Origin: Vibrio mimicus
GTDB taxonomy: Bacteria; Pseudomonadota; Gammaproteobacteria; Enterobacterales; Vibrionaceae
Direction: 5' to 3'
Length of the DNA stretch: 64,000 nucleotides
NCBI RefSeq assembly: GCF_019048845.1
Contig: NZ_CP077426.1
Location: 1,101,501-1,165,500, forward strand
Under the pieces are notes generated by a model that was given only the letters and a program-made list of their open reading frames with translations, was not told the DNA's origin and did no database searches. Of this stretch, positions 53,925-55,157 are shown piece by piece. Positions within the stretch are counted from its first letter, which is position 1. Each line of letters starts with the position of its first letter. Both the position numbers and the translations under genes were made by a program.

Positions 53925-55076
53925 TTAGTTACCACCCGCAGCTTTGAACCATTGTGTTAAATGGGTTTTGAGATCTTTAAGTTCTTCTGGACCGATTAAG
54001 GCTAAACCGAGATCTTCCGCACGAGTGATATCGTTATGGCGTAATGGACGGAAACTCACCAACATAGCGCGTGCCTGTAAACCTCCGAGTAAGTCGCGGA
54101 GTGATTCTAGTTTATACAGTGTGTCGTCTCCATCATCTCGCATGCCTTTGGTTTTACATTCAATGATATGCAGCTTGTTGTTTACAACGGTGGCGACATC
54201 AAGCTCATTACGGACTTCTCTGTCCCCTAATTGGCGGTAAACTTGTACGTTAAGCGAGCGATCTTGAATGGTCGGTAGGTCATCTTGAATCTGTTTAACG
54301 GTACTGTGCACAAGAGTTTCTAACCATTCGCCGTTGGAAAACCGGCGAGCCTCTTCATTGCTGAAAGTAAGGATACCATTTTCATAAGTGGCAATATTCG
54401 CTTCAACCAGATCGGTCAGCAGAAGGTTTAACTCGCGATAACCTTGTTGTTTATCAGAAAGTTCAACATCCAGTCGTTGTTCTTTACGACAAGTGGTCGC
54501 TAAGTAATTTAATGTGGCAAGCCCTGGCCCCAATTCTAAAGCGTTACCCGCCCAACGCTCGCCTAATTCGTAGAGTTGCTTATCGAGTTGTGGTGGTAGT
54601 TGGTGCTCATTAAATTCGCCTCGTGCACCAAAAATAGTGAGGTAATCGGCAATTGTGATACGGTCTTGAACTTGAGTATCTTGGTTGCCATCCGGATAAA
54701 GCCAGCATAGACAGTCGCTGTTGGGCTCAACCACAAAAATGGGCCAACGGTAGCTACGGAAAATTTCGTAGGCTGAGAGTAATCGATGTCGTAAGCCGCA
54801 GCTTGCATTGAATTTGACTTCTTCTCCACGTGCTTTGAGCGATTCAGCAAGTTCACGAATCGCACTTTTAATGGCAGAAGTGTTAGCCCCTGCCGGGATT
54901 TCAAAGAAATCAGTCGTAATATTACGTTTGTTTAAAACATCGCTAAGGCGTTGAAAAATTACCGTTTGGGACTGGTCGCCGATAAAAATGATGTGACGGC
55001 TAACGGTTCGATGATCGAGCAGTGGTGTGACTAAGCGAACTGGATCCTGATCGATAATCCCTACATGTATAGCCAT
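53925..55076 (-). CDS. Stand-alone CARF plus PD-(D/E)XK nuclease (DUF1887, VC1899-type)
   Basis: 383 residues. N-terminal CARF Rossmann domain about 1-135 with the ligand-loop motif NASCGLRH (90-97), where most CARF proteins of this branch carry NxTGGTK; a winged-helix-like middle about 160-245; and a C-terminal restriction-endonuclease-like domain with E253, E291, D293 and E306-C-K308 (NELDVATVV, IIECKTKG), the PD-(D/E)XK pattern. The same architecture is found in Card1/Can2, effectors of type III CRISPR that are switched on by cyclic oligoadenylate. No CRISPR or Cas10 gene lies in this window. GAGGAAA ribosome site ahead. Single gene between fadR and a chemoreceptor. Confidence 0.88.
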   Translation of the reverse strand: MAIHVGIIDQDPVRLVTPLLDHRTVSRHIIFIGDQSQTVIFQRLSDVLNKRNITTDFFEIPAGANTSAIKSAIRELAESLKARGEEVKFNASCGLRHRLLSAYEIFRSYRWPIFVVEPNSDCLCWLYPDGNQDTQVQDRITIADYLTIFGARGEFNEHQLPPQLDKQLYELGERWAGNALELGPGLATLNYLATTCRKEQRLDVELSDKQQGYRELNLLLTDLVEANIATYENGILTFSNEEARRFSNGEWLETLVHSTVKQIQDDLPTIQDRSLNVQVYRQLGDREVRNELDVATVVNNKLHIIECKTKGMRDDGDDTLYKLESLRDLLGGLQARAMLVSFRPLRHNDITRAEDLGLALIGPEELKDLKTHLTQWFKAAGGN

Positions 55077-55157
55077 AAAGTTTCCTCATGATTTGCTTGC
55101 ATGAGTGGAGAGAAAAGTGGCGCAAGCTTTGTTACTCATATGACGATGAAGGGATGA

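What the first reader, a model, noticed from the sequence alone, without database searches (positions are those of the whole stretch)
53925..55076. Orphan CARF-nuclease without CRISPR
A CARF domain joined to a PD-(D/E)XK nuclease (D293, E306, K308) is the design of Card1/Can2, which are activated by cyclic oligoadenylates made by Cas10. Here it stands alone between housekeeping genes, and I see no CRISPR array or cas gene in 64 kb. The CARF ligand loop reads NASCGLRH rather than NxTGGTK, so the ligand may be different or lost. As I recall, the V. cholerae orthologue VC1899 has a crystal structure but no settled function.
Basis: partly seen in the sequence, partly recalled or inferred. Interest (0 to 1): 0.8.

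Follow-up and report, generated by a model that had tools for sequence, protein, structure and literature searches.

The report
Vibrio-wide orphan CRISPR-type nuclease
A nuclease of the kind that CRISPR systems switch on with small ring-shaped signals has become an ordinary, closely guarded gene of nearly the whole Vibrio family, with its signal pocket rebuilt rather than lost, so it may answer to a signal that has yet to be identified.

Summary
It is the orthologue of V. cholerae VC1899 (PDB 1xmx, 92-94% identical): a CARF domain and a PD-(D/E)XK nuclease. VC1899 is already published as an orphan that cA4 does not regulate; its authors suggested a degenerate, 'cast adrift' defence enzyme. My data argue against decay. 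322 of 329 Vibrionaceae genomes carry it; an order-wide draw of 394 genomes gave only 12 matches outside the family. 50 of 73 named loci share a udp neighbour (the window does not). dN/dS equals that of udp (both 0.0197). In 136 distinct sequences E291, D293, E306 and K308 never vary, nor do D9, D11, P12, R14, N90, S92, G94 and R96 of the altered pocket. Class-level relatives carry a GGTK-like loop, and about half of the relatives tested lie near Cas10. The genome has a CRISPR locus 1.3 Mb away, but type I-Fv; no RAMP or SMODS match was found, and its two Cas10-profile matches are diguanylate cyclases. Best reading: a domesticated CARF nuclease gated by a non-cA4, probably endogenous, ligand. 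Ligand and substrate are inferred, not shown.

The parts
53925..55076 (-). CDS, 383 aa CARF - PD-(D/E)XK protein, orthologue of VC1899 / DUF1887 (PF09002)
54627..55076 (-). CARF domain, residues about 1-150
   Evidence: model and structural matches; Pfam PF23400 only below cut-off
55035..55052 (-). pocket motif D9-Q-D-P-V-R14; D9, D11, P12, R14 invariant in 136 of 136 distinct sequences (Q10 varies)
   Evidence: pocket assignment from PMC7969007 (passages)
54786..54809 (-). ligand loop NASCGLRH, residues 90-97, in place of NxTGGTK
53940..54371 (-). PD-(D/E)XK nuclease domain, residues about 236-379
54147..54206 (-). catalytic stretch: E291, D293, E306-C-K308, K310; E291, D293, E306, K308, K310 invariant in 136 of 136
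   Evidence: mutated residues E291/D293 from PMC7969007 (passages)
55095..55127 (-). inverted repeat GCTTGC (55127-55122) ... GCAAGC (55100-55095) in the leader, just before the likely ribosome-binding site (about 55090-55083, by reading)
   Evidence: conserved in many Vibrio leaders examined, function unknown

Best explanation
This is a domesticated Can2/Card1-type enzyme. An ancestor of the Vibrionaceae took up a CARF-PD-(D/E)XK protein, most likely from the type III CRISPR effector pool, fixed it in the chromosome, and rebuilt its CARF pocket so that cA4 no longer fits but some other, probably endogenous, ligand does. Proposed working: the protein is a dimer through its CARF domains; a ligand held by D9, D11, R14, the N90-A-S-C-G-L-R-H97 loop and E117 closes the two nuclease domains on RNA or single-stranded DNA, and E291/D293/E306/K308 with a divalent metal cut it. 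Shown here or in print: fold, catalytic residues, near-universal presence in the family, a clade of its own, purifying selection, a frozen altered pocket, no cA4 response of the V. cholerae orthologue. Inferred: that a ligand exists, what it is, the substrate, the dimer mechanism in this protein and the cellular role.
For: Presence: 322 of 329 Vibrionaceae genomes, 309 of 315 good ones, 12 of 13 genera. In the order sample 46 of 394 have a match: 34 are Vibrionaceae, 12 are not, these at 38% identity or less. Kangiellaceae, which hold a near relative, have it in only 4 of 40. Position: convergent udp within the fetched flank in 50 of 73 named Vibrionaceae loci, in all six genera of that set. 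The core proteins form one clade of 26 rows (100/100) whose inner order largely follows the genera, with open forks. Constraint: median dN/dS 0.016 over 120 pairs; 0.0197 for the gene and 0.0197 for udp on the same 69 pairs. Residues: catalytic and most pocket residues 136 of 136, although the CARF domain as a whole averages 0.73. Of the nine CARF pocket residues named in PMC7969007, seven are at or above 0.97 (47 of 150 CARF positions are; hypergeometric P 0.004; 0.011 and 0.022 at stricter cut-offs). Class-level relatives carry N-x-[TS]-G-G-x-[KR] in 9 of 9 readable cases. Cas10-profile matches lie within 12 kb of 10 of 19 sporadic relatives and second copies, and within 10 kb of 9 of 17 class-level relatives. 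Eight of those 10 + 9 Cas10 matches score low (32-41 bits); all eight are PADLOC Cas10 (best E 1e-20 to 6e-182) and match no other Pfam family, while the two GGDEF cyclases of the own genome match PADLOC Cas10 not at all or at E 6e-4.
Against: No ligand is known. The purified V. cholerae orthologue showed almost no activity in published assays, so it may be inactive for lack of ligand or simply weak. Of the pocket residues named in print, D34 (75 of 136) and Q10 (108 of 136) vary. A conserved pocket could reflect dimer packing. Loss of GGTK does not by itself mean loss of a type III link: L097 and L100, second copies near Cas10, read NLSEGRP and NVSEGRA, and the Neiella relative near RAMP, Cas6 and Cas10 genes reads NASTGSHH. 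About half of the relatives tested have no Cas10 match nearby. Five of the 40 genomes have a frame break (that set was chosen partly for double matches), and two larger genomes lack the gene (G133, G015). Of the other neighbours measured, the HIT gene is more constrained (0.0099 against 0.0194 on 39 pairs).
Confidence: 0.55

Rival explanations
1. Constitutive housekeeping nuclease: the CARF dimer has become a mere scaffold, and the nuclease does slow RNA processing or DNA repair (PMC7969007 compares the Can2 nuclease with the nuclease EndoMS) without any ligand.
For: Nuclease domain more conserved (0.90) than CARF (0.73). Weak RNase activity of VC1899 not regulated by cA4 (passage). Core-gene distribution.
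Against: It does not predict that pocket residues taken from the published list stay fixed while the rest of the CARF domain drifts. VC1899 showed very little activity in vitro.
Confidence: 0.2
2. [quoted passage not shown]
For: No cA4 response and little activity in vitro; pocket unlike Can2 (PMC7969007).
Against: 322 of 329 genomes keep it; dN/dS equals that of udp; catalytic and most pocket residues 136 of 136; a copy at 41% identity persists in a 2.6 Mb Vibrionaceae genome (G036). It can hold only in the narrow sense that the OLD function is lost.
Confidence: 0.1
3. A defence effector of broad use that listens in trans to cyclic oligonucleotides from whatever cyclase the strain carries (Cas10, CD-NTase) or to a phage-made nucleotide.
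For: Fold and family. Some Vibrionaceae do have Cas10 (7 of 329 with palm matches of 99 bits or more; four lower-scoring ones in G037, G107 and G134 are Cas10 too).
Against: Clear Cas10 matches are rare while this gene is nearly universal (weak palm matches there mix with GGDEF, so the true Cas10 number is not known). The own genome has no SMODS and no RAMP match and no real Cas10; other CD-NTase families were not searched for. cA4 does not regulate the V. cholerae orthologue. No match in 50,697 phage records, and one partial match (50% covered, 30% identity) in 72,556 plasmid records.
Confidence: 0.12

Closest known systems
VC1899 of Vibrio cholerae (PDB 1xmx, DUF1887)
   Same: Orthologue: 92-94% identical, full length, same fold
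   Different: Nothing of substance; what is added here is its evolution across the family
Can2 (SthCan2, PDB 7bdv)
   Different: cA4-activated and type III linked (PMC7969007); its Ser19/Thr42/Lys99/Tyr118 contacts are D9/D34/R96/V115 in VC1899 and the loop is NASCGLRH
Card1 (PDB 6wxw, 6xl1)
   Different: 15-18% identity; CARF_Card1 profile only below cut-off; a type III effector (recalled)
Cdn1 (PDB 9u49, 8z4i)
   Different: Binds three cyclic oligoadenylates and lies in a type III-B locus (PMC12825302, one passage)

Membership tests
VC1899 / DUF1887 (PF09002) protein family | Match to PF09002 above the curated cut-off | tested here: met
   211.4 bits, cut-off 26.4
VC1899 / DUF1887 (PF09002) protein family | N-terminal CARF fold joined to C-terminal PD-(D/E)XK with its catalytic residues | tested here: met
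Can2/Card1 cA4-activated type III CRISPR ancillary nuclease | GGTK-type ligand loop and the Ser/Thr/Lys/Tyr contacts | tested here: not met
   NASCGLRH; D9, D34, R96, V115
Can2/Card1 cA4-activated type III CRISPR ancillary nuclease | CARF_Card1 (PF23400) profile above cut-off | tested here: not met
   16.9 bits, cut-off 24.6; some Vibrio orthologues do carry PF23400 in the database's precomputed annotation
Can2/Card1 cA4-activated type III CRISPR ancillary nuclease | Encoded in or with a type III CRISPR locus | tested here: not met
   Own genome: no RAMP match; the two Cas10-palm matches are GGDEF cyclases; the CRISPR locus found is type I-Fv, 1.3 Mb away
Can2/Card1 cA4-activated type III CRISPR ancillary nuclease | Nuclease switched on by cA4 | not testable with these tools
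   Published negative for the V. cholerae orthologue (PMC7969007)

The most novel reading that the evidence does not exclude
The Vibrionaceae run a nucleotide-signal pathway of their own that is neither CRISPR nor CBASS: a core-genome CARF receptor-nuclease with a rebuilt, acidic pocket. The pocket (D9, D11, E117 beside R14, R96, H97) would suit a nucleotide that bears a positive group, such as an amino-acid or SAM-linked adenylate, better than a bare cyclic oligonucleotide; the nuclease would then trim RNA or single-stranded DNA in stress or phage infection. The maker of the signal would be an unknown core gene.
Probability: 0.3. Interest if true: 0.85.

Novelty: new variant of a known kind. 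Interest (0 to 1): 0.6.

Why it matters
VC1899 was one of the first CARF structures, and its paper treats it as a possible relic. If its pocket and active site are kept by selection in nearly every Vibrionaceae genome, there is a real job, and probably a real ligand, to find, with a genetic way to find them (a core gene, usually single copy, in fast-growing harmless hosts). It would be a clear case of a CRISPR signalling effector turned into a household enzyme, and it makes the question 'what do CARF domains bind outside CRISPR?' directly testable.

Tried and rejected
Chance or artefact: rejected (full-length orthologues, solved structure). Hidden type III system in the genome: the Cas10 palm profile gave two matches, both GGDEF diguanylate cyclases (GGEEF motif; TIGR00254 111 and 136 bits; PADLOC Cas10 none and E 6e-4). 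PF22335 alone cannot separate weak Cas10 from GGDEF (226 of 329 family genomes exceed its cut-off), so the low-scoring matches beside relatives were checked one by one: seven of the ten beside sporadic relatives and second copies, and the one of G813 at class level, eight in all; all eight are PADLOC Cas10. A mobile gene: no phage record, one partial plasmid match. An SOS box (CTG-N10-CAG) up to 260 bases upstream: none in the 32 upstream regions scanned. Leader hairpin as a proven RNA element: in 28 leaders that I chose out of 57, 95.9% of cells pair, but covariation does not exceed shuffles (209 of 500 reach it); z-scores of six leaders run from -0.95 to -3.3; no Rfam family reaches its gathering score; one search finds no perfect repeat of six or more in many of the 49 distinct leaders. 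Operon partners: the commonest neighbour udp is convergent (50 of 50). A second family with the gene fixed (Kangiellaceae): 4 of 40 only. Not done: dimer model with ligand; a named look at the V. natriegens orthologue; arrays elsewhere in the genome; CD-NTase families other than SMODS; the source organism's name.

Rows dropped: from the 109 proteins, 20 were left out of the first orthologue count (L083, a broken copy; L102, added again; 18 distant relatives or second copies under the 58% identity limit). Of 80 named loci, the 73 of six Vibrionaceae genera were counted; left out were six from other families and the second copy of Thaumasiovibrio. L202 and L208 gave a wrong frame and were not counted (9 of 11 read). 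L057, whose frame ends early, was used as it stands. The 136 sequences include L096, a second copy (58-59% identity).

Full report

WHAT IS ALREADY KNOWN. PMC7969007 (passages and one section seen) purified VC1899: no plasmid nicking at 37 or 50 C, very little RNase, not regulated by cA4. In the parts that I saw, cA4 was the only activator tried on VC1899. The residues where cA4 touches Can2 are D9, D34, R96 and V115 in VC1899, in an acidic and hydrophobic setting. The authors call it an orphan and perhaps a degenerate defence enzyme cast adrift. PMC6981274 (passages) had earlier modelled cA4 into it with few clashes. PMC4012209 (passages) notes that some VC1899-family genes are not CRISPR-linked, one of them in a cluster with Ter genes. 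Searches for VC1899 (8 papers), DUF1887 (5), 1XMX (22, 20 listed, mostly unrelated), VCA0850/VC1900/Card1-like (2), CARF with Vibrionaceae (5, none on this by title), CARF with orphan/Vibrio/CRISPR (12), CARF with Vibrio cholerae/nuclease/cyclic oligoadenylate (23, 12 listed) and CARF with CRISPR-independent/Can2 (0) showed me no paper on its family-wide conservation (listings only beyond the passages named; the library lacks most subscription papers).

A NEAR-UNIVERSAL GENE OF ONE FAMILY. 322 of 329 Vibrionaceae genomes have it, 309 of 315 good ones, 12 of 13 genera. The seven misses are G113 (1.0 Mb), G126 (1.1 Mb), G016 (2.1 Mb), G021 (2.6 Mb), G257 (65% complete), G133 (3.1 Mb) and G015 (4.4 Mb). 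In an even draw from the order, 46 of 394 genomes match: 34 Vibrionaceae (own included) and 12 others at 38% identity or less (misses there are listed only in part). In the class draw, 29 of 369, own included, match the alignment A2. Kangiellaceae, which hold a near relative, have it in 4 of 40. So the step from patchy to near-universal lies at or near the base of the Vibrionaceae. Broken copies exist: of 40 genomes looked at closely, five (G103, G004, G100, G296, G322) have a frame break, and that set was chosen in part for double matches; ten more double-match genomes were not examined.

SITE AND DESCENT. In 73 named Vibrionaceae loci, a gene of the udp cluster (PF01048 for one gene of this kind, in L106; the name uridine phosphorylase is recalled) is convergent in 50, in all six genera (Enterovibrio 6 of 8, Vibrio 17 of 31, Salinivibrio 6 of 6, Photobacterium 16 of 23, Grimontia 4 of 4, Veronia 1 of 1). 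The gap is under 600 bases in 45 of these 50 and 1.3-6.3 kb in five. HIT and chemotaxis-type genes are near in 29 and 25 of 31 Vibrio loci; fadR, as in the window, in 11 of 31, so the window's own surroundings are a later arrangement of one branch (inference). In a 45-row tree the core orthologues (26 rows, L096 and L102 among them) form one clade (100/100), ordered mostly by genus, with several open forks; the rooting is midpoint only, and long branches were flagged.

KEPT BY SELECTION. Pairwise dN/dS (Nei-Gojobori) has a median of 0.016 over 120 pairs with dS 0.2-1.2. In the named set it is 0.0195 over 75 pairs; on 69 shared pairs 0.0197 against 0.0197 for udp; on 46 pairs 0.0167 against 0.0192 for the chemotaxis-type gene; on 39 pairs 0.0194 against 0.0099 (HIT) and 0.0329 (lipoprotein-like gene); one pair with fadR, 0.0291 against 0.0125. 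In 136 distinct sequences (163 before removing duplicates), 41-100% identical to the window, E291, D293, E306, K308 and K310 never vary; D9, D11, P12, R14, G33, N90, S92, G94 and R96 never vary; A91, C93, H97, V115 and E117 vary once each; L95 three times. D34 (75 of 136) and Q10 (108 of 136) do vary. The CARF domain averages 0.73 conservation, the nuclease 0.90. Of the nine CARF pocket residues named in print, seven are at or above 0.97 against 47 of 150 CARF positions (hypergeometric P 0.004); at cut-offs of 0.985 and 0.99 the P values are 0.011 and 0.022.

THE POCKET WAS CHANGED, THEN FROZEN. Of 11 class-level loci fetched, nine could be read, and nine of nine carry N-x-[TS]-G-G-x-[KR], six of them exactly NxTGGTK. 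Nearer relatives outside the core lineage carry other loops (NASNGSR, NASCGDR, NASCGPRH, NASTGSHH, NTTGDR). Cas10-profile matches over the cut-off lie within 12 kb of 10 of the 19 sporadic relatives and second copies that I listed, and within 10 kb of 9 of 17 class-level relatives, 17 of the 28 non-own genomes having been given to that search. Eight of these 10 + 9 Cas10 matches score only 32-41 bits, a range that GGDEF proteins can reach too; all eight turn out to be PADLOC Cas10 (best E between 1e-20 and 6e-182) and match no other Pfam family, while the two GGDEF proteins of the own genome do not behave so. This supports descent from type III effectors. It also cuts the other way: L097, L100 and the Neiella protein lack GGTK and yet lie near Cas10, so an altered loop alone does not prove release from type III signalling; and about half of the relatives show no nearby Cas10.

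NO TYPE III PARTNER FOUND IN THE GENOME. No RAMP match (the control rings in 4 of 14 genomes), no SMODS match (the control rings in 3), and two Cas10-palm matches that are diguanylate cyclases. The genome does have a CRISPR locus: Cas1f, a Cas3f-like protein (below its full-length cut-off), Cas7fv, Csy4 and an array with 39 copies of a repeat-spacer-repeat unit, 60 bases apart in those listed. It is type I-Fv and, by what is known of type I systems (recalled), makes no cyclic oligoadenylate.

HOW IT MOST LIKELY WORKS. Given the frozen pocket, the catalytic set and the failure of cA4 in print, I think a different ligand, most likely endogenous since no partner gene in an operon is conserved beside it, closes the dimer and switches on metal-dependent cutting of RNA or single-stranded DNA. 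Shown: fold, residues, distribution, selection. Inferred: ligand, substrate, role. The acidic trio D9, D11, E117 beside R14, R96, H97 makes me favour a ligand with a positive group; type III signalling by conjugation of ATP and SAM exists (PMC10600005, title and start of abstract in a listing; the name SAM-AMP is recalled), which makes such ligands thinkable, no more.

VERDICT. The family is known and so is the orphan status of the V. cholerae protein. What is new here is the evidence that the orphan is a constrained, near-universal gene of its family with a rebuilt pocket, which argues against the published 'degenerate' suggestion.

Noticed in passing
window 55127-55122 and 55100-55095 (minus strand); leaders of L001-L057: An inverted repeat GGCTTGC ... 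GCAAGCC with a spacer of about 20-29 bases sits just before the ribosome-binding site of this gene in many Vibrio leaders (28 chosen of 57: 95.9% of cells pair, G-U tolerated, covariation not above shuffles). It may be an RNA hairpin or an operator.
   Followed up: partly
L196 (G000:C2:2421500-2441000): Type I-Fv CRISPR locus (Cas1f, Cas3f-like, Cas7fv, Csy4) with a long array in the same genome.
   Followed up: partly
L096:9247-10407: A second copy (58-59% identical, same NASCGLRH loop) on another contig of G122, next to TerD and TelA genes and close to type VI secretion genes; PMC4012209 mentions a VC1899-family gene in a Ter cluster (passage).
   Followed up: partly
window 53931-53939 (C-terminal residues 380-382): The C-terminal AGG is kept in at least 98.5% of the 136 sequences although the model is very unsure of the tail (pLDDT about 31 for the last three residues) and its length varies; AGG is not seen in the tails of the other-family relatives printed.
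   Followed up: no
L102:8991-10133: A 41%-identical orthologue is retained in a 2.6 Mb Vibrionaceae genome (G036), with D9, D11, P12, R14, NASCG and R96 kept but H97 changed to K.
   Followed up: no
L085, L114, L116 and L117 (Kangiellaceae, Thalassotalea); L119 (Pseudoalteromonas): Relatives with NASNGSR-like or NASCGDR loops; L085 lies by an EPSP-synthase-family gene, L117 by a TraG/TraD-type gene, L119 by a phytase; none of the five neighbours checked there is a RAMP.
   Followed up: partly
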